Positions 8,220-28,580 of a stretch of DNA of 64,000 nt are shown piece after piece. Below the pieces are notes generated by a model. It worked only from the letters and a program-made list of their open reading frames with translations. It was not told where the DNA came from and searched no databases. The stretch's first letter is position 1. Each line of letters begins with the position of its first letter. This DNA comes from Candidatus Nitrotoga sp. LAW. Its GTDB lineage: Bacteria; Pseudomonadota; Gammaproteobacteria; Burkholderiales; Gallionellaceae. The position numbers and the translations under genes are program-made. The stretch is from positions 62,001 to 126,000 of the forward strand of contig QFXI01000028.1 of NCBI GenBank assembly GCA_003402315.1. Reading direction: 5' to 3'.

Positions 8220-9675
8220 ATGTTCGAACAAGCTTTCAAAAATATCGACGACGTCCTCTGGAAAGAGGCAGGTTGTGCCAGCGAACTGGACTACACCGAG
8301 CAGACCTCTTGGCTGCTATTCCTGAAATTTCTGGATAGCCTGGAGCAGGACAAGGCCATGGAGGCCGGGCTAGAAGGCAAGAAATACACCTTCATCCTCG
8401 ACGCGCCCTACCGCTGGGAAAGCTGGGCCGCGCCCAAAGGAGCCGACGGCAAGCTTGACCACAACAAAGCGCTGACCGGCGACGACCTGTGCGATTTCGT
8501 CGACCGCAAGCTCTTCCCCTACCTGCACGGCTTTAAGCAGAAGGCCAGCGGGCCGAATACCCTCGAATATAAGATCGGCGAAATTTTCGGCGAGATCAAG
8601 AACAAGATTCACAGCGGCTACAACCTGCGCGAGATCATCGACCACATCGACGAATTGCGCTTCCGCTCGCAAACCGAAAAGCACGAACTATCGCACCTGT
8701 ATGAAGCCAAGATCAAGAACATGGGCAACGCGGGCAGGAACGGCGGCGAGTACTACACCCCGCGGCCGCTGATTCGCGCCATGGTGCAAGTGGTGCAGCC
8801 AACAATCGGCGAGCGCATCTACGACGGCGCCTGTGGCTCGGCGGGCTTCCTGTGCGAAGCGTTCGATTACCTCAAGGCCAAGCCCGGCCTTACCACCAGC
8901 AACATCAAGACGCTGCAAGAGCGTACCTTCTACGGTAAGGAAAAGATCGCTGGCCTACGTCATCGCGACCATGAACATGATTCTGCACGGCATCGAGGCG
9001 CCCAACATCGCCCACACCAACACCCTGGCCGAGAACCTCGCCGACATTCAGGACAAGGACCGCATGGACGTGATCCTGGCCAATCCGCCCTTCGGCGGCA
9101 AGGAGCGCAAGGAAGTCCAGCAGAACTTCCCCATCCGCACCGGCGAAACGGCTTTTCTCTTCCTCCAGCACTTCATCAAAATGCTCAAGGCCGGCGGCCG
9201 AGCCGGTGTGGTCATCAAGAACACTTTCCTGTCCAACACCGACAACGCTTCGGTGAGTTTGCGCAAACTGCTGCTGGAAAGTTGCAACCTGCACACCATC
9301 CTCGATTGCCCCGGCGGCACCTTCCAGGGCGCGGGCGTGAAAACCGTCGTGCTGTTCTTTGAGAAGGGCGCGCCAACCAGAAAGGTCTGGTACTACCAGC
9401 TCGACCCCGGCCGCAACATGGGCAAGACCAACCCGCTCAACGATGCCGACCTGATCGAATTCGTGAAACTGCAAAAGACCTTCGCCGACTCGCCCAAGAG
9501 CTGGTCTGTTGATACCCTCGCCCTGAGCGCAGCCGAAGGGTACGATCTGTCGGTGAAGAACCCCAACGGCGGCGAGGAAATCGCGCATCGCAGCCCGCAG
9601 GACATCATGGACGAAATCGCCGCATTGGATACCGAGAGTGCGGACGTACTGACAAACATCAGGTTGCTACTATGA
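8220..9675 (+). pseudogene. hsdM: type I restriction-modification DNA methyltransferase HsdM, frameshifted
   Basis: Modification subunit of a type I restriction system (N6-adenine methyltransferase). The N-terminal part (8220 to about 8946) has the HsdM_N helical domain and the start of the methylase domain (GEYYTPRPLIRAMV, DGACGSAGFLCEA). The rest (about 8947-9675) is in the +1-shifted frame and carries the catalytic ILANPPFGG motif and the C-terminal domain. The break is at 8941-8949: the run reads GGTAAGGAAAAGATCGCTGGCC where family members encode KEKKSLAYVI. A net change of +1 or -2 bases restores the frame. Either the gene is inactivated or the base call is wrong. The end overlaps hsdS by ATGA at 9672, as in an intact operon. 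Codon use is more GC-rich than in the flanking core genes. Confidence 0.88.
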
Positions 9676-10703
9676 AGTCAGGGTGGCAAACCAAGATGCT
9701 TGGCGAAGTTATCCAGCTCGAGTACGGCAAGCCACTTGACCGAGCAGATCGCAATCCAAACGGTCGCTACCCAGCATATGGGGCCAACGGCATTAAAGCT
9801 CGCACTGATAAGTTCTACAAGGATAACGCTAGCATCGTCGTCGGAAGAAAGGGCTCGGCTGGTGAAATCACGCTGACTGAAGAAAAATTCTGGCCGCTTG
9901 ATGTTACCTACTTTGTTGAATTCGACAGGCAACATTACGATCTGCGGTTTCTCTATCACCTACTAACCACCCTTAACTTACCGAGTCTGGCAAAAGGCGT
10001 GAAACCGGGCATCAACCGGAACGAGGTTTATGCACTCCCCGTGCATGTCCCCCCGCTTCCCGAACAGCAGCGCATCGTCGATATCCTCGACGAAGCGTTT
10101 GACGGCATCGCCGCCACCAAAGCCAACGCCGAAAAGAACCTTCAAAACACCCGCGCGCTGTTCGAAAGCCATCTGCAATCCGTCTTCAAGAAGCGCGGCG
10201 AGGGCTGGGTGGAGAAGACTTTGGGAGAGATGGCTACATTTAGGAATGGAATCAATTTCAACAAATCGAGCAAGGGTGAGCCGATCAAAATTCTCGGGGT
10301 AAAAAACTTTCGGAATTGCTATTGGGCTCCGCTAGATGATTTTGATTCAATTATTCCTGATGGGACTCTCGCAGATTCAGACACATTGAAGCAAAACGAC
10401 ATAGTTTTTGTTAGGTCAAACGGCAACCCCGAACTTATCGGCCGCTGTCTCTTGGTTGGAGAAGTCAGCGAAAGGGCGGTACACTCAGGCTTTACGATCA
10501 GAGCTCGTCTGCACACTTCTGAAATTTCACCGGACTACCTATGTCGCTTCTTGAAGTCAAACAAGGCACGTAGGGAGATGATTGATGGCGGCAATGGCCT
10601 GAACACTAAAAGTCTAAACCAAGGGACACTTTCTCGCTTAGTCATCCCGTTTCCTTACGCCGCAGAGCAATCTCAGATCGTTGATTCACTTGAAGAGTTA
10701 TAA
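9672..10703 (+). CDS. hsdS: type I restriction specificity subunit HsdS, C-terminally shortened by a stop codon
   Basis: DNA-recognition subunit of the type I complex. Two target-recognition domains are visible (about residues 1-125 and 185-335), each followed by a conserved helix region (PPLPEQQRIVDILDEAFDGI; PYAAEQSQIVDSLEEL). The frame stops at TAA 10701-10703. The same frame then continues for 33 codons to TGA at 10803-10805 and encodes AETLRLESIYQRKL followed by LKKSLLHQAFSGAL, the normal HsdS C-terminus. So this is a single in-frame nonsense codon, not a natural end. The lost helix normally pairs with its mirror and contacts HsdM. The start overlaps hsdM by ATGA. Confidence 0.88.
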   Translation: MKSGWQTKMLGEVIQLEYGKPLDRADRNPNGRYPAYGANGIKARTDKFYKDNASIVVGRKGSAGEITLTEEKFWPLDVTYFVEFDRQHYDLRFLYHLLTTLNLPSLAKGVKPGINRNEVYALPVHVPPLPEQQRIVDILDEAFDGIAATKANAEKNLQNTRALFESHLQSVFKKRGEGWVEKTLGEMATFRNGINFNKSSKGEPIKILGVKNFRNCYWAPLDDFDSIIPDGTLADSDTLKQNDIVFVRSNGNPELIGRCLLVGEVSERAVHSGFTIRARLHTSEISPDYLCRFLKSNKARREMIDGGNGLNTKSLNQGTLSRLVIPFPYAAEQSQIVDSLEEL

Positions 10704-10805
10704 GCTGAAACCCTGCGTCTCGAATCCATTTACCAGCGCAAGCTCACCGCCCTCGACGACCTGAAAAAATCCCTGCTGCACCAGGCCTTCAGCGGGGCGC
10801 TGTGA

Positions 10806-10959
10806 CTCGGGGGCGTCGATGGCCTGGACTTGTACACGCCATCGACATATCGACGCCACGTGTCGATGAAATGCCGAAAAATCGACACATCCTCGCCCGA
10901 ACCCAATCCGGCTTGACGCAAAACTTGACTTATGCTTGACAGTAATTTAGCCTGCGGCC
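10806..10959 (+). promoter_or_regulatory. operator-like GTCGAT repeats and TTGAC repeats upstream of fic
   Basis: The 154-base gap between the original hsdS end and fic is full of short repeats. GTCGATGGC (10815-10823) pairs with GCCATCGAC (10838-10846). A single ATCGAC lies at 10849-10854. GTGTCGAT (10860-10867) pairs with ATCGACAC (10881-10888). Then CTTGAC occurs three times at 10912, 10924 and 10935, spaced 12 and 11 bases. Such symmetric and phased repeats usually bind a repressor or provide a -35 element. The regulator is not identified; the winged helix of the Fic protein itself is one candidate (inference). Confidence 0.5.
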
Positions 10960-11967
10960 ATGGCGTATGTCCCGCAATTCACCATCACCCCAGCGCTGCT
11001 GACGCAAGTCGAGCAGGTGGCGGCCTTGCGTGAGCGGATTCAGGGCGCGGTGGTGGATCTGGCCTGGGTGCCGGCCTTGCAGAAGGACACCCGCACCCGC
11101 AATGTGCATGCCTCCACCGCCATCGAGGGCAACCCGCTGACGCTGGAGCAGGTGCGCGCGCTGGAGGAAGGGCGCGAGCTGTCCACCCCCGGCGTGCGGG
11201 CCAAGCGCGAGGTGTTCAACTACTTTGCCGGGCTGCGCTACGTGGAAAAGCACGCGGCCAAAAAGAAGATAGGCCATGCCGACGTGCTGGAGCTGCATCG
11301 CATCCTGGCTGGTCAGGTGATGGACCAGGGCGAGGCCGGCAAGTACCGCATGATCGCGGTGCGCGTGGGTGCCTACCGTCCGCCGCCGGCGGACGCCGTG
11401 TCGGGCCTGATGTTCGAACTGCTGGAATGGTGGAACACGGCGGCACGGACGCTCTCGCCGGTGCTCAGCTCGGCCATCCTGCATTACCGCTTTGAGGCCA
11501 TCCACCCCTTTGCCGACGGCAATGGCCGCACGGGCCGGGCGCTGGCCTTGTGGGAGCTGTACCGGCGCGGCTTTGACACGCACCACATTTTTTCAGTCGA
11601 TGAATATTACTGGGAAGACCGGCCCGCCTACTATGCCGCGCTGCAAGGCGTGCGCGAAGCGGGCGAGGACATGAGCGCCTGGCTCGAATACTGCGCGGCC
11701 GGCTTGCGGCAAACGCTGGAGCGGGTCTGGTTGCGGATTCAGACCTTGCAGGTGAAGTCTGCTGACAAGCTGGTGTTGCGCCCGCGGCAGGAGCAACTGC
11801 TGCATTTGCTGCGCGACCACGGCGGCATGGCGCCGGCGGACATCTGGGCGGCGCTGGGCGTGTCACGGCAGGGAGCGATGGACTTGCTGCGCCCGCTGCT
11901 GGACGCGGGGGTGGTGGAGAAGGTCGGCGGCAGTAAGACCGGGCGCTATGTGCTGAAACACTTATGA
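10960..11967 (+). CDS. Fic family protein (putative AMP-transferase) with C-terminal winged helix
   Basis: 335-residue Fic protein. The catalytic motif HPFADGNGRTGR (182-193) is complete and predicts nucleotide transfer, usually AMP from ATP to a hydroxyl side chain of a target protein. An N-terminal inhibitory helix motif STAIEGN (52-58) with Glu56 is also present, so it is a self-inhibited class II Fic. The C-terminus (about 270-335) reads as a winged helix-turn-helix (MAPADIWAALGVSRQGAMDLL). It sits inside the type I restriction operon, between hsdS and hsdR, and its stop overlaps the hsdR start (ATGA at 11964). Fic genes occur in several hsd operons, but their role there is not settled. 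No convincing ribosome binding site precedes the ATG. Confidence 0.9.
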   Translation: MAYVPQFTITPALLTQVEQVAALRERIQGAVVDLAWVPALQKDTRTRNVHASTAIEGNPLTLEQVRALEEGRELSTPGVRAKREVFNYFAGLRYVEKHAAKKKIGHADVLELHRILAGQVMDQGEAGKYRMIAVRVGAYRPPPADAVSGLMFELLEWWNTAARTLSPVLSSAILHYRFEAIHPFADGNGRTGRALALWELYRRGFDTHHIFSVDEYYWEDRPAYYAALQGVREAGEDMSAWLEYCAAGLRQTLERVWLRIQTLQVKSADKLVLRPRQEQLLHLLRDHGGMAPADIWAALGVSRQGAMDLLRPLLDAGVVEKVGGSKTGRYVLKHL

Positions 11968-14300
11968 ACGAAGCCGAAACCCGCGCCGAACACATCGATC
12001 CAGCCCTTGCGGCGGCGGGCTGGGGCGTGGTCGAAGGCAGCCGCATCCGCCGCGAGTATCCGATCACGCTCGGCCGCATCGAGGGCCATGGCAAGCACGG
12101 CAAAGGGCTCACCGCCGATTACGTGCTCGAGTATCGCAATACCAAGCTGGGTGTGATCGAAGCCAAGGCGTGGGGCAAGACGCTGACGGAGGGTGTGGGG
12201 CAGGCCAAGGATTACGCGGGTAAGCTGGCCGTTCGTTTCACCTATTCCACCAATGGTCAAAACATCTACGGCATCGACATGCACACCGGCATTGAGGGTG
12301 AGTTGCCGCATTATCCTTCGCCGGAGGAATTGTGGAATCGCACCTTTTCCGCTCATAACGTTTGGCGCGAACGCTTTGCGGCCGTGCCGTTCGAGGATCG
12401 GGGCGGCTACTTTCAGGGACGCTATTATCAGGACATCGCCATCGAGCGGGTGCTTGAGGCCATCGCCGACCAGAAGCAACGCATTCTGCTGACACTGGCG
12501 ACCGGCACGGGCAAGACCTTCATCGCCTTCCAGATCGCGTGGAAACTATTCCACAGCCGCTGGAACCTGAACGACCGGAAAATAGAAAGCGAACCGACGC
12601 GGCGGCCGCGCATCTTGTTCCTGGCTGACCGCAACATTCTGGCCGATCAGGCGTTCAACTTCTTTTCCGCTTTTCCCGAAGATGCGCTGGTTCGCATCGC
12701 CCCGGAGGACATCCGCAAGAAGGGCAGGGTGCCGAAGAACGGCAGCATTTTCTTCACTATCTTCCAGACATTCATGGCTTCGGCAGGCTCAGCCACCGGG
12801 CCTGCCGAGGGGTATTTCGGCGAGTATCCGCCGGATTTCTTCGACTTCATCGTGATCGACGAGTGCCATCGGGGCGGGGCGAATGACGAAAGCAACTGGC
12901 GCGGCATCCTCGACTACTTTGCCCCCGCCGTACAGCTTGGCCTGACTGCTACGCCCAAGCGCCGCGACAACGTGGATACCTACGCCTATTTCGGCGAGCC
13001 GGTGTTCGTCTACTCGCTCAAGGACGGCATCAATGACGGATTTCTGACGCCGTTCCGGGTGAAGCAGATTTCCACAACGCTGGACGAGTACGTCTATACG
13101 CCCGATGACACGCTGGTCGAGGGCGAGATCGAGGCGGGCAAGCGCTACGAGGAAGCCGACTTCAACAAGATCATCGAGATCAGGGAGCGGGAGAAAAAGC
13201 GGGTTGAAATTTTCATGTCGCAGATCGACCAGCGGGAGAAAACGCTGGTCTTCTGCGCAAACCAAGCGCACGCGCTGGTAATACGGGATCTGATCAACCA
13301 GACGAAGAGCAGTACTGATCCGAATTACTGCCAGCGGGTGACGGCCGATGATGGCGTGTTGGGCGAACAAAACCTGCGGGATTTTCAGGATAACGAGAAG
13401 ACCATTCCCACTATCCTGACCACCTCGCAGAAGCTCTCGACCGGCGTGGACGCCCGCAATGTGCGCAACATCGTGCTGCTGCGGCCTATCAATTCGATGA
13501 TCGAATTCAAACAGATCATCGGGCGCGGCACGCGACTCTATGACGGCAAGGACTACTTCACGATCTACGATTTCGTGAGGGCGCACCATCATTTCAACGA
13601 CCCGGAGTGGGACGGCGAGCCGCTTGAGCCGGAACCAAGAGAAGCTGTGCCGGTTCCCGCGCCACGAGCGCCCATTGAGGCGCAAGAACCGGCGGCGGAA
13701 TACCAGGCTCGACAAAAAATCAGGATCAAACTCGCCGACGGCAAGACGCGCACCATTCAGCACATGATGGTGACCAGCTTCTGGCACCCGGACGGCACGC
13801 CGATGTCGGCGCAGCAGTTCATGGAAGCGCTGTTCGGCAAGCTGCCCGAATTCTTCAAGGACGAAGAAGAGCTGCGCGCCTTGTGGGGTGCACCGGATAC
13901 ACGCAGGAAACTGTTGGAGGGACTCGCCGAAAAAGGCTTCGGCAAGGATCATCTGGCCGAAATGCAGAGGATCATCGACGCAGAGAAAAGCGACCTGTTC
14001 GATGTGCTGGCCCATGTAGCTTATGCTTTGGCTCCGCTTACCCGCGAAGAACGCGCTGCCCAGGCGATGGCATTCATCAGCACCCACTTCAACAGCAAAC
14101 AACAGGTCTTTCTCGATTTCGTGCTCTCGCACTACGTCAGCGTCGGCGTGGAGGAACTCGATTCGGCAAAGCTGAAACCGCTGCTGTGCCTGAAGTACCA
14201 CGATTCAATTGCGGATGCTGTGGCTGATCTTGGCAAGCCGGAAGAGATTGGCAAGGTGTTCAGCGGCTTTCAGAAATACCTTTACCAGGAAACGGCTTGA
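11964..14300 (+). CDS. hsdR: type I restriction endonuclease subunit HsdR (EcoEI-like)
   Basis: Motor and nuclease subunit that translocates DNA and cleaves it when bound to HsdM2-HsdS. The N-terminal nuclease domain shows Asp52 in TADYVLEY and Glu66-Ala-Lys68 in GVIEAKAW. The superfamily 2 helicase region has Walker A ATGTGKT (179-185), DECH in VIDECHRGG, TATPKR, and the motif VI region IIGRGTRLYDGKDYF. The C-terminus matches the EcoEI R C-terminal domain. The length of 778 residues is normal and no break is seen. It is the only fully intact subunit of this system, because hsdM and hsdS are damaged. Without HsdM-HsdS the R subunit should not cut DNA. Confidence 0.93.
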   Translation: MNEAETRAEHIDPALAAAGWGVVEGSRIRREYPITLGRIEGHGKHGKGLTADYVLEYRNTKLGVIEAKAWGKTLTEGVGQAKDYAGKLAVRFTYSTNGQNIYGIDMHTGIEGELPHYPSPEELWNRTFSAHNVWRERFAAVPFEDRGGYFQGRYYQDIAIERVLEAIADQKQRILLTLATGTGKTFIAFQIAWKLFHSRWNLNDRKIESEPTRRPRILFLADRNILADQAFNFFSAFPEDALVRIAPEDIRKKGRVPKNGSIFFTIFQTFMASAGSATGPAEGYFGEYPPDFFDFIVIDECHRGGANDESNWRGILDYFAPAVQLGLTATPKRRDNVDTYAYFGEPVFVYSLKDGINDGFLTPFRVKQISTTLDEYVYTPDDTLVEGEIEAGKRYEEADFNKIIEIREREKKRVEIFMSQIDQREKTLVFCANQAHALVIRDLINQTKSSTDPNYCQRVTADDGVLGEQNLRDFQDNEKTIPTILTTSQKLSTGVDARNVRNIVLLRPINSMIEFKQIIGRGTRLYDGKDYFTIYDFVRAHHHFNDPEWDGEPLEPEPREAVPVPAPRAPIEAQEPAAEYQARQKIRIKLADGKTRTIQHMMVTSFWHPDGTPMSAQQFMEALFGKLPEFFKDEEELRALWGAPDTRRKLLEGLAEKGFGKDHLAEMQRIIDAEKSDLFDVLAHVAYALAPLTREERAAQAMAFISTHFNSKQQVFLDFVLSHYVSVGVEELDSAKLKPLLCLKYHDSIADAVADLGKPEEIGKVFSGFQKYLYQETA

Positions 14301-23553: not shown

Positions 23554-24855
23554 ATGACCGAACCAACTATTACCTGTCCAAGTTGCAAGACTGAGATCAA
23601 ACTCACTGAATCGCTCGCCGCTCCTTTGATAGCGGCGACACGCAAGCAGTTCGAGCAACAACTGGCGCAGAAGGATAATGATATCGCACAGCGCGAACAG
23701 GCCATGCGTGAGAAGGAAAAGCAGCTTGCAGAAGACAAGCGCAAACTTGACGATCAGGTCGCTGATCAAGTCGCGGCACAGTTAAAAGAAGAACGCGCCC
23801 GCGTTATTGCTGAGGAATCCAAGAAGGCTAAACTTGCCAGTGCAGTCGAATTGGAAAACAAGGCACGTGAATTGTCCGAATTGCAAGCGGTAGTAAAGGT
23901 AAACAATGAAAAGCTGGCCGAGGCACAGAAGGCGCAAGCCGAACTCATCAAGAAGCAGCGTGAACTCGATGATGCCAAGCGCGAACTGGAACTTACGGTA
24001 GAAAAGCGGGTACAGGATGGATTGACCCACGTTCGCACGCAAGCCAAAAAAGAAGCCGAGGACGAACAAAAGCTCAAGGTAATGGAGAGGGAGCAGACCA
24101 TTGCCGCGATGCAGAAACAGATTGAAGACCTCAAGCGCCGGGCCGAGCAAGGATCACAACAATTGCAGGGCGAAGTCCAGGAGTTGGAGCTTGAAAATCT
24201 GTTGCGCACCAAATTTCCTTTTGATGACATCGAGCCAGTACCCAAGGGGGAATTTGGCGGGGATGTGCTGCATCGCGTTGTTGGCGCAGGCGGCCACTCC
24301 GGTGGCACCATTTTGTGGGAGTTCAAGCGCACCAAAAACTGGAGCGATGCCTGGCTGGTAAAGCTTCGCGGAGACCAGCGCACCGCAAAGGCAGAAATCG
24401 CCGTGATCGTGAGCCAGATATTGCCGAAAGGCGTTGAAACCTTTGAAATGGTAGATGGCGTCTGGGTAACACATCCCCGCGCCGCATTGCCGGTAGCGAT
24501 GATTTTGCGCCAGTCATTGCTGGAACTCGCCCTTGCGCGGCAGTCCATAGAAGGCCAGCAGACCAAGACCGAAATGGTCTACCAGTACCTCACCGGCCCG
24601 CGTTTTCGCCAGCGGGTAGAAGCGATAGTCGAAGCGTTTTCCACCATGCAGGAAGACCTCGACAAGGAAAGAAAAGTTATCATGAAACAATGGGCCAAGC
24701 GAGAAGAGCAGATCGAGCGGGTGATGGGGGCAACGGTGGGGATGTATGGGGACTTGCAGGGGATTGCGGGGAAATCGTTGCAGGAGATTGAGGGCTTGGA
24801 GTTGCAAACATTAGACACTGAAAGTAAAACACCAAAGGCACTGACCAACTCATGA
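23554..24855 (+). CDS. DUF2130 protein: coiled coil plus PD-(D/E)xK nuclease-like domain
   Basis: 433-residue protein. An N-terminal CPSC motif (residues 8-11) looks like half of a zinc ribbon. Residues about 30-215 are a long charged coiled coil. The DUF2130 core follows, with Asp237 in GGDVLHR and Glu256-x-Lys258 in LWEFKRTKNW, the layout of a PD-(D/E)xK nuclease. Activity is not proven for this family. A second helical segment closes the protein. An AAAGGA ribosome binding site precedes the ATG. Its stop overlaps the SIR2 start by ATGA (24852-24855), so the two are translationally coupled. It is the first gene of the four-gene cluster and may act as the nuclease or sensor of the system (inference). 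Confidence 0.85.
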   Translation: MTEPTITCPSCKTEIKLTESLAAPLIAATRKQFEQQLAQKDNDIAQREQAMREKEKQLAEDKRKLDDQVADQVAAQLKEERARVIAEESKKAKLASAVELENKARELSELQAVVKVNNEKLAEAQKAQAELIKKQRELDDAKRELELTVEKRVQDGLTHVRTQAKKEAEDEQKLKVMEREQTIAAMQKQIEDLKRRAEQGSQQLQGEVQELELENLLRTKFPFDDIEPVPKGEFGGDVLHRVVGAGGHSGGTILWEFKRTKNWSDAWLVKLRGDQRTAKAEIAVIVSQILPKGVETFEMVDGVWVTHPRAALPVAMILRQSLLELALARQSIEGQQTKTEMVYQYLTGPRFRQRVEAIVEAFSTMQEDLDKERKVIMKQWAKREEQIERVMGATVGMYGDLQGIAGKSLQEIEGLELQTLDTESKTPKALTNS

Positions 24856-26126
24856 GCACACAATCGCACTGCCCATACCGGCAATCAAATAATCTTTTAG
24901 ATGCACTTGCTTCAGACAAGACAAAGGTTGCTTTTCTTCTCGGCGCTGGATGCCCAGTTTCTATTCCGCATCCAGATGGTGACGTGACAAAATCATTGAT
25001 TCCTGACATTCGTGGGCTCACTGCGGTCGTCAAGAATAAACTCGGTGAGTCAAAAAATCACATAGACAGCTTCAATGCCATCTTGAAGCGGATTGCGGAA
25101 GGGGAACCAGCCGATCCAACGATTGAAGATATCCTGAGTCATATCCGCGCGCTTCAGGAAGTAGTGCGGAATGGCGACATGCATGGTTTAACTAGAACCG
25201 CGCTCGCTGAACTCGATGAAAAAATATGTGAGATCACCACTGAAGTCGTCGGAGCTGAACTACCTGACTTCAATACGCCCTACCATCAGCTAGCAAAATG
25301 GATTGGTGGAATTCAGCGTGCACAGCCAGTCGAAGTATTCACACCAAACTACGACTTGTTGGTAGAACAGGCCTTCGAAGCGCACAGAATTCCATACTTT
25401 GACGGGTTTGTCGGTTCTAAGGAGGCTTTCTTTGACCTAACCTCAATGGAGGAAAATGTATCTCTTCCGGCACACTGCTTACCGGTGCGCTGGAGCCGAT
25501 TGTGGAAACTACATGGATCCATAAATTGGTGGGGCAGGTATGAGGATGAGAACAAGAAAAATATTAAGGTAGTGCGGACAGGTACCGAAAAACCAATTAA
25601 AGGTGATCGCCAGATGATTTATCCGTCACACCTTAAATACGACCAGAGTCGAAGATTGCCGTATTTGGCTATGCTTGACCGCCTAAAAAATTTCCTGTCT
25701 CGAGGTCAAGCAGTCTTAGTAACCTGTGGATATTCCTTTGCTGATCAGCATTTGAACGAGGTTATTTTTCATGGTTTGAGAAGCAATCCATCAGCAATTT
25801 GCTTTGGGCTCTTGTACGGTCCACGGTCGAACTACTCAGATGAATTGATAAAAAAACAAAAGCACCCAAACCTTAGTCTGTTCGCGAGCGATGGTGCAGT
25901 TTTAGGCACGATAGAACGCGATTGGCGAAGTGACGAAAATTTAGAGCATGTGATGCATGGGTTGAGTGTCATTAAAAAAGAACCTACCGGAGTCGATGAT
26001 ACATTCCTTACAAACTGCGAGTTTCAGCTAGGGAACTTCAAACATTTTGGTGATTTTTTAGAACAACAGCTTTCCCGCTGCGATGATGAGAAGCAAAGCG
26101 AAAAGAAGGTCGGCAATGCTGCGTGA
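24852..26126 (+). CDS. SIR2-domain protein of a SIR2-HerA defence pair
   Basis: 424-residue SIR2-like protein. The NAD pocket landmarks are present: LLGAGC (29-34), FTPNYD with Asn166 and Asp168, and the catalytic histidine in LHGSINWW (His221). Defence SIR2 proteins hydrolyse NAD+ rather than deacetylate. With a HerA ATPase they form the SIR2-HerA (Nezha) complexes, shown in other bacteria to deplete NAD+ or cut DNA on phage infection. The C-terminal 100 residues are helical and of unknown role. The start is coupled to the DUF2130 stop, and the end overlaps herA by 11 bases. No frameshift is seen, so the gene appears intact. Confidence 0.88.
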   Translation: MSTQSHCPYRQSNNLLDALASDKTKVAFLLGAGCPVSIPHPDGDVTKSLIPDIRGLTAVVKNKLGESKNHIDSFNAILKRIAEGEPADPTIEDILSHIRALQEVVRNGDMHGLTRTALAELDEKICEITTEVVGAELPDFNTPYHQLAKWIGGIQRAQPVEVFTPNYDLLVEQAFEAHRIPYFDGFVGSKEAFFDLTSMEENVSLPAHCLPVRWSRLWKLHGSINWWGRYEDENKKNIKVVRTGTEKPIKGDRQMIYPSHLKYDQSRRLPYLAMLDRLKNFLSRGQAVLVTCGYSFADQHLNEVIFHGLRSNPSAICFGLLYGPRSNYSDELIKKQKHPNLSLFASDGAVLGTIERDWRSDENLEHVMHGLSVIKKEPTGVDDTFLTNCEFQLGNFKHFGDFLEQQLSRCDDEKQSEKKVGNAA

Positions 26127-28029
26127 TCCCACCTTCATTGGAACCGTGCAAGACGTACATGGCGCAACGATAACTGTTGAGCTTACCAACGATACGGTGA
26201 GAGGACTTAGCTTCGTACGTGGCGAGGGCTACCGCATTGGCCAAGTGGGAAGTTTTGTTCGTATTCCGTTAGGGTTCGTCGATTTATATGGAGTGGTCTC
26301 ACAGGTGGGCGCGGGCGCAGCACCCCAGCGAGAACAAGAACTACGGGTTTACGGTAACCGTTGGGTTACGGTGCAAATGGTTGGTGAAGGTCAGCGCAGA
26401 GGCCAGTTCAAGCGAGGAATATCTCAGCATCCAACAATTGATGACCGTGTTCATATCGTTACCGAGGCCGATCTTCGCGCAATTTATGGAGCTGGCGAAC
26501 CGGATGATTTCGTGGCTGTAGGCCATCTTGCTAGCGCTGAATCCATTCCGACGCTTGTTAACATCAATAAGCTCGTTACACGGCACTCGGCCGTTGTAGG
26601 GACCACCGGGTCAGGCAAGTCGACGACTGTGGCGGGCCTGCTAAATTCTTTGTCTGAATCATCTCACTATCCGTCGGCCAGAATTGTCGTCCTCGATATT
26701 CATGGCGAATACTCTAAAGCACTCTCTGATAGAGCGGCAGTATTTCGCGTCGCCGAAGATGCTGACAAAGGCCAGAAGGCGTTACGCGTTCCGTTTTGGG
26801 CACTTAGTTTTGATGAGTTGACTGCGCTCGCGTTTGGCAACCTAAGTGAAGCCCAAAAGCCAGCCGTGGCCGACGCTGTTGTGCAACTAAAGAAAGAGTC
26901 TCTGAAAAATCAAGCTAGAGAAGGCATAGATGAAGCACGGATAACAGTTGATTCCCCAATCCCGTTTTGCCTGCACAAACTCTGGCTTGAGCTACATAAA
27001 CGTGAGCATTACACGATAGTACCGAGGCCAGGGACTGCGACGGATGAAGTGGATCCAGCGTATGTACTTGGGACAGATGGTAAGCCGCTGCAACAAGGTG
27101 ATGCCATGTCTGTTACGCCCCCTCTTTATCGGACGATTAAGACAACTGGCACGGCTAGTGAGCGAGTACAACAAGGCAGTGGCTCAGTTGGAATTCGTCA
27201 ACATCTAGCTGGTTTGGCATCGAGGCTTCGCGACCCTAGAATGAGCTTCCTCTTCAATCCTGGGGACTGGTTACCCGATATTGATGGCAAAATTAACAAA
27301 GACTTAGATGCTCTTCTTGAAGAATGGATTGGTGGGCCACAACCGATCACGATTCTCGATCTATCAGGCATCCCATCTTCTGTACTTAACGATCTGATTG
27401 GTGCGTTGCTGAGAATTCTTTATGACGCCATTTTTTGGGCAAGGGATCTGCCGGAGGGTGGGCGGTTACGACCACTACTGTTGGTGCTTGAGGAAGCGCA
27501 TGCATACTTGTCCAAAGAGAACGCTGGCACTGCCGCAGTCGCCGTCAGAAGGATTGCCAAAGAGGGGCGCAAGTATGGCGTAGGCATGATGATCGTAAGT
27601 CAACGTCCATCCGAAATTGATTCAACCATCCTCTCGCAGTGCGGAACCATATTTGCGATGCGCCTTGCGAATGATACTGACCGAGGCCACGTTGCCGGTG
27701 CGGCATCTGATAATCTCAAAGGTCTCTTTGACATGCTTCCGATTTTACGAACGGGTGAGGCCATTATTGTAGGCGAGGCGGTAAGCCTTCCGGTACGAAC
27801 TCTCATTTCCCCGCCACCACTAAACAGGCGTCCTGATAGTGAAGACCCATGTGTGGTCGAACGCCGAGACGCGGACGGCGGCTATCAAGGTCCAGCTGGG
27901 TGGAGTCAGCCTCGCGACCCACCCAATTATGTACCAATGGTGAGACAGTGGCGAAAGCAAAGCCACCATTACGAGCACAATCCGATTGCCGTAAACGCGA
28001 TCAAAGAATCAGATGATAAAAAGGAGTGA
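26116..28029 (+). CDS. HerA-like DNA translocase/ATPase (DUF87) of a SIR2-HerA pair
   Basis: 637-residue FtsK-HerA superfamily ATPase, expected to form a hexamer that partners SIR2. An N-terminal HAS-barrel (about residues 5-75) precedes the ATPase core. Walker A GTTGSGKS is at 162-169, and Walker B ends in the acidic pair of LLLVLEEAHAY (near 459). The motif GRKYGVGMMIVSQRPSEI and the arginine-containing RLANDTDRGHV follow. I choose ATG 26116 because an AGAAGG site lies 6 bases upstream and MLRDPTFIGTV starts the family fold. An ATG at 26083 would overlap SIR2 much more. The stop is 3 bases before the KTSC gene. Confidence 0.9.
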   Translation: MLRDPTFIGTVQDVHGATITVELTNDTVRGLSFVRGEGYRIGQVGSFVRIPLGFVDLYGVVSQVGAGAAPQREQELRVYGNRWVTVQMVGEGQRRGQFKRGISQHPTIDDRVHIVTEADLRAIYGAGEPDDFVAVGHLASAESIPTLVNINKLVTRHSAVVGTTGSGKSTTVAGLLNSLSESSHYPSARIVVLDIHGEYSKALSDRAAVFRVAEDADKGQKALRVPFWALSFDELTALAFGNLSEAQKPAVADAVVQLKKESLKNQAREGIDEARITVDSPIPFCLHKLWLELHKREHYTIVPRPGTATDEVDPAYVLGTDGKPLQQGDAMSVTPPLYRTIKTTGTASERVQQGSGSVGIRQHLAGLASRLRDPRMSFLFNPGDWLPDIDGKINKDLDALLEEWIGGPQPITILDLSGIPSSVLNDLIGALLRILYDAIFWARDLPEGGRLRPLLLVLEEAHAYLSKENAGTAAVAVRRIAKEGRKYGVGMMIVSQRPSEIDSTILSQCGTIFAMRLANDTDRGHVAGAASDNLKGLFDMLPILRTGEAIIVGEAVSLPVRTLISPPPLNRRPDSEDPCVVERRDADGGYQGPAGWSQPRDPPNYVPMVRQWRKQSHHYEHNPIAVNAIKESDDKKE

Positions 28030-28032
28030 AAA

Positions 28033-28245
28033 ATGGATTGGATTGAAACACCCGAATCTTCAAACATTACTCGGTTTGCCTATGACGATACAAGCTATGT
28101 CCTGAAGGTGGAATTTAAAAACGGTGGCCTATACGATTACTTTGATGTGCCACAGCATATCTTTGAGGGGATGCGTAGCGCACCATCAAAGGGACAATAC
28201 TTGGCACAGCAGATTAAGGGGGCTTATCGGTATGCAAGAGCCTAG
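28033..28245 (+). CDS. KTSC domain protein, 70 aa
   Basis: Single KTSC domain: SSNITRFAYDDTSYVLKVEF, then GGLYDYFDVPQHIFEGMRSAPSKG. The fold is small and beta-rich; it is named for its occurrence at the end of some lysyl-tRNA synthetases and also stands alone in many bacteria. Its biochemical role is unknown. It begins 3 bases after the HerA stop with an AAAAGGAG site in the herA end, so it is the fourth gene of the DUF2130-SIR2-HerA cluster. It may be a regulator or target sensor of that system (inference), or a passenger. Confidence 0.85.
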   Translation: MDWIETPESSNITRFAYDDTSYVLKVEFKNGGLYDYFDVPQHIFEGMRSAPSKGQYLAQQIKGAYRYARA

Positions 28246-28271: not shown

Positions 28272-28580
28272 ATGCTCTGCCTGGAAAGTACGATGCGTAA
28301 GCAAAAACTCGAACTTACTTGGATTGGCAAGAGGAACCAGTACAAGCTGGGGTCGGATATCTTGCTGGAAGACCCGGCGAAGAGTTATTACGTGAAGCAT
28401 AGGGTGAAGAATAACGGCATATTAGACAATCAAGTGGTGCAAAAATGCTTCGGACTACGCGGTAGCCAAAGGCGGCAAGCCTTGGAGTTGTCTGCAGATC
28501 CACCAACCGTGATTGCGACCAATATGATGCTAAAGGGCCGGTTAGGGCAGTTTGGATGCTATCAGGACATGCGAAGTTGA
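28272..28580 (+). pseudogene. type III restriction-modification relic: start of mod joined to end of res
   Basis: The open frame looks like one protein, but it is a composite. MRKQKLELTWIGKRNQYKL and LLEDPAKSYYVKHRV (from 28293) match the N-terminus of type III Mod methyltransferases. At about 28431 the Mod match ends. In another frame from 28432 the DNA encodes KWCKNASDYAVAKGGKPWS, the usual end region of the type III Res subunit (WCK.AS..A...GGKPW.Y.LIPHD), and a further frameshift brings in MMLKGRLGQFGC, resembling the final Res residues. So the middle of a mod-res operon, about 4-5 kb by family lengths, is gone. No active protein is expected. Confidence 0.7.

What the first reader, a model, noticed from the sequence alone, without database searches (positions are those of the whole stretch)
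23554..28245. Four-gene coupled cluster DUF2130-SIR2-HerA-KTSC as an extended defence system
SIR2-HerA pairs are known antiphage systems acting through NAD+ loss and/or DNA cleavage. Here the pair is flanked by two extra genes with operon-tight spacing: DUF2130 overlaps SIR2 by ATGA, SIR2 overlaps HerA by 11 bases, and KTSC starts 3 bases after HerA. DUF2130 has a PD-(D/E)xK-like Asp237...Glu256-x-Lys258 arrangement and a long coiled coil, so it could add a nuclease or sensor. All four frames are intact in an island where neighbouring systems are decayed, suggesting selection keeps this one.
Basis: partly seen in the sequence, partly recalled or inferred. Interest (0 to 1): 0.85.

Follow-up and report, generated by a model that had tools for sequence, protein, structure and literature searches.

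The report
Swappable defence cassette behind DUF2130 nuclease
Three of the four genes form a recognisable anti-virus module (SIR2-HerA-KTSC), and the fourth, a predicted DNA-cutting enzyme, marks the edge of a genomic slot in which close relatives carry quite different defence genes.

Summary
In detail: four intact genes with the stated overlaps. KTSC is core: it follows HerA or is fused to it in 29 of 29 HerA loci of this clade (fused in 3), and the closest solved HerA (PDB 8wiv) has KTSC fused at its C-terminus. SIR2-HerA-KTSC also occurs on plasmids without DUF2130. DUF2130 is linked beyond chance but is not a dedicated fourth subunit: directly upstream in 9 of 29 loci, none seen nearby in 16. 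In eight same-genus relatives DUF2130 is 90-96% identical, yet the DNA diverges within its last ~60 bp and other genes follow (another SIR2-HerA-KTSC lineage, another SIR2-HerA, AAA ATPase, Schlafen fragment, ImmA/IrrE and others). Homology resumes in six of the eight, at a type III methyltransferase or Wadjet gene. DUF2130 has an invariant PD-(D/E)xK motif, models as that fold and is under purifying selection whatever follows it. Best reading: a nuclease gene forming the left wall of a hot-swap defence slot in a type III R-M/Wadjet island, now loaded with SIR2-HerA-KTSC. Embedded defence cassettes are known; the three held papers that mention DUF2130 are not on defence by title and abstract. 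A working four-protein system is not excluded.

The parts
23554..24855 (+). DUF2130: CxxC N-terminus, long coiled coil, PD-(D/E)xK-like nuclease domain, helical C-terminus; left wall of the cargo slot
   Evidence: Pfam 272 bits; D237/E256/K258 and C8/C11 invariant in 62 + 26 rows; domain model with alpha-beta-beta-beta-alpha-beta order, pLDDT 71; about 16 of the first 20 Foldseek hits are nucleases that I recall as PD-(D/E)xK, none below E 0.001
24795..24855 (+). exchange zone: 3' end of DUF2130 where homology to same-genus relatives stops
   Evidence: homology ends at 24795-24848 in 8 of 8 same-genus loci; tail similarity goes with cargo
24852..26126 (+). SIR2-family NADase-like effector
   Evidence: PADLOC 414 bits; PDB 8w9l 329 bits; N166, Y167, D168, H221 conserved in at least 23 of 24 clade members
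26116..28029 (+). HerA-family ATPase/translocase
   Evidence: PADLOC 546 bits; PDB 8wiv 723 bits; Walker A G165-S-G-K-S169 and E459/E460 conserved in at least 22 of 23
28033..28245 (+). KTSC domain protein, integral to this SIR2-HerA clade
   Evidence: Pfam 79 bits; fused to HerA in L015, L077, L079 and in PDB 8wiv at residues 631-695
28272..28432 (+). 5' remnant of a type III DNA methyltransferase (Mod), right wall of the slot in relatives
   Evidence: PADLOC MTase_III 34 bits; nucleotide homology about 28299-28432 to L002, L064, L118, L120
23188..23466 (+). remnant of a BRO-N protein upstream of DUF2130
   Evidence: nucleotide homology to L003 and L066 from 23249/23257; 65% over 62 aa; longer BRO genes before DUF2130 in L003, L066, L130
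28631..29254 (+). truncated JetA (Wadjet), far right flank of the slot
   Evidence: PADLOC JetA 332 bits; JetA-JetD without visible breaks in L115, nearly so in L116
29292..30467 (+). JetD in three pieces (decayed Wadjet)

Best explanation
The cluster is two things joined. (1) SIR2-HerA-KTSC is a complete three-gene anti-phage module. By homology to solved systems a HerA hexamer joins layered SIR2, whose NADase then depletes NAD+ and aborts infection; KTSC probably sits at the HerA C-terminal face, where it is fused in other members, and may contact nucleic acid. (2) DUF2130 is a separate coiled-coil PD-(D/E)xK-type nuclease gene that forms the left wall of an exchangeable cargo slot; the right wall is the 5' end of a type III methyltransferase gene, then Wadjet. 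Cargo is swapped by recombination in the last ~60 bp of DUF2130, so new cargo arrives in operon with it. SIR2-HerA-KTSC is the present cargo. Shown here: gene content, conservation, fusion, break points, independent evolution. Inferred: biochemistry, the role of KTSC, nuclease activity of DUF2130, and recombination as the cause of the swaps.
For: KTSC in 29 of 29 clade HerA loci, fused in 3, and fused in PDB 8wiv. Copies on Paracoccus, Pseudoalteromonas, E. coli and Enterobacter plasmids show no DUF2130 in the flanks, and none of those genera is among the 38 plasmid records with a close DUF2130. Eight same-genus loci with 90-96% DUF2130 and other content behind it; homology ends at 24795-24848 in 8 of 8 and resumes at the Mod or JetA region in 6 of 8. 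Over 20 loci with identified first cargo, tails of same-cargo pairs are alike (median 53%, 23 pairs) against 27% for 167 other pairs; 0 of 5000 label shuffles reach this. Nine DUF2130 with SIR2-HerA-KTSC directly behind need nine changes on the tree and are rejected as one clade, p-AU 4.5e-8. Window v L118: DUF2130 91%, SIR2 36%, HerA 50%; L002 v L006: DUF2130 82%, SIR2 92%, HerA 91%. Partial second copies of the DUF2130 3' end behind a first cargo in L066 and L117. DUF2130 dN/dS 0.08-0.10 against four same-genus loci, three of them without SIR2-HerA.
Against: Three SIR2-HerA-KTSC lineages sit behind DUF2130; four family genomes, window included, have both genes and all four have them adjacent, co-occurrence without the window p = 0.03. 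A divergent DUF2130 lies 15 bp upstream of DUF4297-HerA in L062. L005, L007 and L059 have DUF2130-SIR2-HerA-KTSC without Mod-Res downstream in the flank held (L007 has a Mod-Res pair of another type upstream). L115 and L130 share an 80% identical tail although their first cargo genes differ. 35 of 53 DUF2130 loci not found through HerA show none of the defence genes searched, so the slot is not general to DUF2130. No swap was observed; it is inferred from sequence breaks.
Confidence: 0.72

Rival explanations
1. A true four-subunit system: DUF2130 is a functional nuclease or sensor subunit that works with SIR2-HerA-KTSC.
For: ATGA coupling in window, L002, L003, L005, L006, L008 and L105; DUF2130 directly upstream in records titled Pseudomonadota, Planctomyces and Hydrogenedentota; a divergent DUF2130 15 bp upstream of DUF4297-HerA in L062; 5 of 15 HerA hits in the order sample, window included, have some DUF2130 within about 2.2 kb, random expectation without the window 5e-12 (island clustering not controlled).
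Against: 16 of 29 clade HerA loci show no DUF2130 nearby, and for 9 of these the genome as held has none; other cargoes are coupled as tightly to DUF2130 (L106, L107, L116 at -4, L066 at -8, L065 at +3); DUF2130 and the cassette do not co-evolve.
Confidence: 0.2
2. Plain defence-island neighbourhood: DUF2130 and SIR2-HerA-KTSC are unrelated passengers that happen to be adjacent.
For: The surroundings are a decaying island; 35 of 53 DUF2130 loci not found through HerA show none of the defence genes searched.
Against: Tight junctions with three SIR2-HerA-KTSC lineages and with other cargo; break points confined to the same ~60 bp of DUF2130 in 8 of 8 same-genus loci.
Confidence: 0.08

Closest known systems
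SIR2-HerA with KTSC-fused HerA in PDB 8wiv/8wld/8woc/8wod/8wof, SIR2 8w9l
   Same: best PDB match of both SIR2 (329 bits) and HerA (723 bits); KTSC is part of the HerA chain, residues 631-695
   Different: KTSC is a separate 70-aa gene here, and DUF2130 stands in front. I could not confirm the paper or organism of these entries
SIR2-HerA of PDB 8j4u/8su9/8uaf (8uaf is called Sir2-HerA in PMC11263360, passages read)
   Same: SIR2 and HerA partners
   Different: distant: SIR2 47 bits, HerA 101 bits; KTSC there not examined
HerA-KTSC conflict systems in PMC9503650 (2022; passages read; authorship by Aravind's group recalled)
   Same: HerA ATPase coupled to a KTSC gene
   Different: that paper has an endonuclease in place of the sirtuin and calls the two mutually exclusive; here KTSC goes with the sirtuin, and DUF2130 adds a likely nuclease beside it
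DUF4297-HerA (PMC11291478, passages read)
   Same: HerA hexamer activating a layered effector; a DUF4297-HerA pair lies behind DUF2130 in L018
   Different: effector is a nuclease, not SIR2; blastp with the window KTSC found none in L018
Defence genes embedded in R-M systems (DarTG2 between hsdS and hsdR, PMC12255303, passages read; Payne 2024 preprint, not held, seen as its citation)
   Same: a defence cassette inside another system's operon at a suspected recombination hotspot
   Different: type I R-M there; here relatives are type III R-M with SNF2, DUF2130 and Wadjet, and the break lies in DUF2130

Membership tests
SIR2-HerA anti-phage system (broad) | adjacent SIR2 and HerA genes matching PADLOC models | tested here: met
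   11-base overlap
SIR2-HerA anti-phage system (broad) | NADase residues and Walker motifs intact | tested here: met
   N166, Y167, D168, H221; G165-S-G-K-S169, E459/E460; role of N/Y/D/H in a related SIR2 from PMC11263360 passages
SIR2-HerA anti-phage system (broad) | NAD+ depletion on infection | not testable with these tools
   needs an assay
NCBIfam equivalogs NF042942 (SIR2), NF042943 and NF042944 (HerA) | score above the curated cut-off | tested here: not met
   73 v 500, 186 v 800, 234 v 850 bits: not a member of these equivalogs
KTSC as core gene of this HerA clade | KTSC next to or fused with HerA | tested here: met
   29 of 29 loci, 3 of them fused
PD-(D/E)xK nuclease (DUF2130) | conserved D...ExK on an alpha-beta-beta-beta-alpha-beta core | tested here: met
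   62 of 62 and 26 of 26 rows; model with that order
PD-(D/E)xK nuclease (DUF2130) | significant structural match to a solved member | tested here: inconclusive
   best hits HindIII, SPARDA, Hjc, McrBC; best E 0.011
Dedicated DUF2130-SIR2-HerA-KTSC system | DUF2130 present wherever the other three are | tested here: not met
   directly upstream in 9 of 29, none seen nearby in 16 of 29
Dedicated DUF2130-SIR2-HerA-KTSC system | co-inheritance of all four genes | tested here: not met
Type III R-M with embedded cassette | cassette between DUF2130 and a full-length Mod-Res pair | tested here: not met
   in the window only a Mod 5' fragment remains; seen in relatives L002, L003, L006, L118

The most novel reading that the evidence does not exclude
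DUF2130 is an interchangeable nuclease chassis: one coiled-coil PD-(D/E)xK enzyme partnered in turn with different motor ATPases (HerA pairs, OLD-type, SNF2/Res), its variable C-terminal tail, which is exchanged together with the cargo, serving as a cargo-specific docking adaptor.
Probability: 0.15. Interest if true: 0.8.

Novelty: new variant of a known kind. Interest (0 to 1): 0.5.

Why it matters
It separates what is core (KTSC) from what is locus architecture (DUF2130) in a defence cluster, and gives a natural series within one genus in which nearly the same nuclease gene precedes different defence genes. That makes it directly testable whether nested defence modules work together or merely share an operon and a recombination site. 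It also bears on the published idea that sirtuins and endonucleases exclude each other in HerA-KTSC loci: here a sirtuin and a predicted nuclease stand side by side.

Tried and rejected
Full-length DUF2130 model from 10 sequences: pLDDT 63, no useful PDB fold match; the nuclease domain alone did better. PDB sequence search with the DUF2130 profile gave only chance hits, best E 0.51. Promoter and terminator scan: no more sites than in shuffles. Viral contigs: two with DUF2130, six with distant HerA only. Genome-level co-occurrence in the family sample is weak (p = 0.03 without the window), so I rely on junctions. Random-placement figures ignore island clustering and assume genomes of 3.0-3.6 Mb.

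Corrected on re-checking: L015 first seemed to lack KTSC; a profile search shows it fused to the shortened HerA. In one search some cargo labels (L122, L127, L119) had been given partly from tail likeness, which is circular; one search repeats the test on 20 loci without them, and L007 was in neither. The correlation of body and tail (r = 0.03, 24 loci) does not depend on labels, but its alignment scores unrelated tails near zero. The 'DUF4276' of L116 and the 179-aa protein of L117 are known only by position and size, so I do not name them.

Limits: HerA relatives L002-L016 were found with the window's own HerA and favour close kin. Not counted among the 29: second copies of the same loci (L026-L030, L036, L057, L126, L134, L135, L137), L105 (SIR2 cut at a contig end), and distant HerA of about 25-35% identity (L017-L025, L031-L035, L141-L146). 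In one search four rows (L105, L009, L012, L097) were left out of the count of changes. The DUF2130 sets hold only proteins aligned over 300 residues, so broken genes are left out. Gene calls in fetched loci are mechanical longest-ORF calls.

Full report
What is there. The four genes are real and intact, with the overlaps described. They match DUF2130, SIR2, HerA and KTSC. Around them lie a BRO-protein remnant upstream, a type III methyltransferase 5' fragment just downstream of KTSC, and pieces of Wadjet JetA and JetD.

KTSC is core. I assembled 29 loci of the HerA clade (38% identity or more to the window HerA): the window, L002-L016, five others from an order sample of 399 genomes, five plasmid loci and three more of the family. 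A KTSC profile finds KTSC behind or within HerA in all 28 besides the window. In L015, L077 and L079 it is fused to the HerA C-terminus. SIR2 is seen in 27 of 29: L013 begins inside HerA at a contig edge and L015 has a shortened HerA with no SIR2 before it. The closest solved HerA, PDB 8wiv, is 696 residues long with KTSC at 631-695, and the closest solved SIR2, 8w9l, shares entries with it. The nine more distant HerA of the order sample have no KTSC beside them. PMC9503650 (passages) already mentions HerA coupled to a KTSC gene, but with an endonuclease in place of the sirtuin.

DUF2130 is linked but not dedicated. A close DUF2130 lies directly upstream in 9 of 29 loci (window, L002, L003, L005-L008, L059, L118), downstream in 3 (L009, L012, L097), a divergent one downstream in 1 (L060), and none is seen nearby in 16. 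For nine of the 16 (L004, L010, L011, L013, L014, L016, L077-L079) the whole genome as held has none (the genome of L079 is 68% complete). L136 and L138 gave no match at E 1e-40. L101-L104 show none in the flanks, and their genera are not among the 38 plasmid records with a close DUF2130. L015's genome has one on another contig. In 150 family genomes DUF2130 is in 25 and clade HerA in 6; both in 4, adjacent in all 4; without the window the co-occurrence has p = 0.03.

Other cargo. In the same genus nine sampled genomes have DUF2130, the window's included, and ten do not. Behind a DUF2130 of 90-96% identity lie: a second SIR2-HerA-KTSC lineage then Mod-RhuM-Res (L118), another SIR2-HerA type (L114), an AAA_21 ATPase 89% like that of L066 (L116), an ImmA/IrrE-like protein (L115), a Schlafen-like fragment and a protein with a weak GHKL-ATPase match below Pfam's cut-off (L058), an AAA_15 ATPase with a D12 methylase a little further on (L117), an HTH protein and one with no match (L120), and opposite-strand genes (L119). 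JetA lies to the right in 7 of 9. Farther relatives show SNF2-DUF2130-SIR2-HerA-KTSC-Mod-RhuM-Res (L002), SNF2-DUF2130-DUF4297-HerA-Mod-Res (L018) and SNF2-DUF2130-OLD-Schlafen-Mod-Res (L064). Of 53 DUF2130 loci not found through HerA, the window included, 18 have any of the searched defence genes within 10.5 kb: 8 Mod, 6 Res, 5 SIR2, 5 HerA; 35 have none, though unsearched cargo may be there.

Junctions. Against the window, homology ends between 24795 and 24848 in 8 of 8 same-genus loci and resumes between 28299 and 28586 in 6 of 8; in L114 and L119 it does not resume in the 6 kb examined. Over 20 loci with an identified first cargo gene, the last 45 bases of DUF2130 plus 60 beyond are alike in same-cargo pairs (median 53%, 23 pairs) and not in others (27%, 167 pairs); none of 5000 label shuffles reaches this. 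One pair goes against it: L115 and L130 are 80% alike with different first cargo. L066 and L117 keep a partial second copy of the DUF2130 3' end behind a first cargo. On a tree of 62 DUF2130 proteins the nine with SIR2-HerA-KTSC directly behind need nine changes and are rejected as one clade (p-AU 4.5e-8). Identities disagree too: window v L118 DUF2130 91%, SIR2 36%, HerA 50%; L002 v L006 DUF2130 82%, SIR2 92%, HerA 91%.

What DUF2130 is. The D...ExK residues and the CxxC pair are invariant in 62 of 62 rows, and in 26 of 26 rows (25 genes) of a branch that is about 22-26% identical. The domain model (pLDDT 71, pTM 0.46) has the PD-(D/E)xK order, with the aspartate just before the second of three core strands counted from 27-30 and ExK at the end of the third. 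The first Foldseek hits are HindIII, SPARDA nuclease, Hjc and McrBC; unrelated folds also appear, and none passes E 0.001. dN/dS is 0.08-0.10 against four same-genus genes, three of them without SIR2-HerA, so DUF2130 is selected for itself.

Against my reading. The divergent DUF2130 branch also lies near HerA pairs: 15 bp upstream of DUF4297-HerA in L062 and 308 bp behind KTSC in L060. Of 15 HerA hits in the order sample, 5 have some DUF2130 within about 2.2 kb, beyond random placement (5e-12 without the window), though island clustering is not controlled. L005, L007 and L059 keep DUF2130 with SIR2-HerA-KTSC without Mod-Res downstream in the flank held. A working partnership is therefore possible.

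Mechanism. Passages in PMC12198126 say that SIR2 forms two layers of six, that a HerA hexamer binds below, and that HerA binding opens the NAD+ pocket in a Staphylococcus system. The window proteins keep the catalytic residues, so NAD+ loss is the likely output. KTSC at the HerA C-terminus would lie on the far side from SIR2; that placement is inference.

Literature. Three held papers contain DUF2130; by title and abstract none is on defence, and I did not read them. Two contain KTSC and HerA as whole words. Embedding of defence genes in R-M systems is known (PMC12255303 passages). The host family is probably that of Sideroxydans, because L126, called same family, lies on a contig of the same length as L002's with 100% matches to its genes.

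Noticed in passing
window 8220-14300: Type I R-M-like genes right after tRNA-Met: the methylase appears split over two frames (8220-9362 and 8833-9675), then a specificity-like gene, a Fic-like gene (10960-11967) and a restriction-like gene (11964-14300); names from reading the translations, not searched.
   Followed up: no
L062:7816-12302: A divergent DUF2130 gene ends 15 bp before a DUF4297-HerA pair.
   Followed up: partly
L043, L046, L050, L087: An OLD-like ATPase ends 2 bp before a divergent-branch DUF2130; in L046 a type III Mod-Res pair follows.
   Followed up: partly
L015:8034-9593: Granulicella HerA, shortened at its N-terminus and without SIR2, with KTSC fused at its C-terminus: probably a remnant.
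   Followed up: partly
L107:8254-9141: A Lit-like peptidase gene overlaps DUF2130 by 4 bases in a phylum-level relative.
   Followed up: no
L097, L009, L012: Bradyrhizobium loci have DUF2130 downstream of SIR2-HerA-KTSC, the reverse order.
   Followed up: partly
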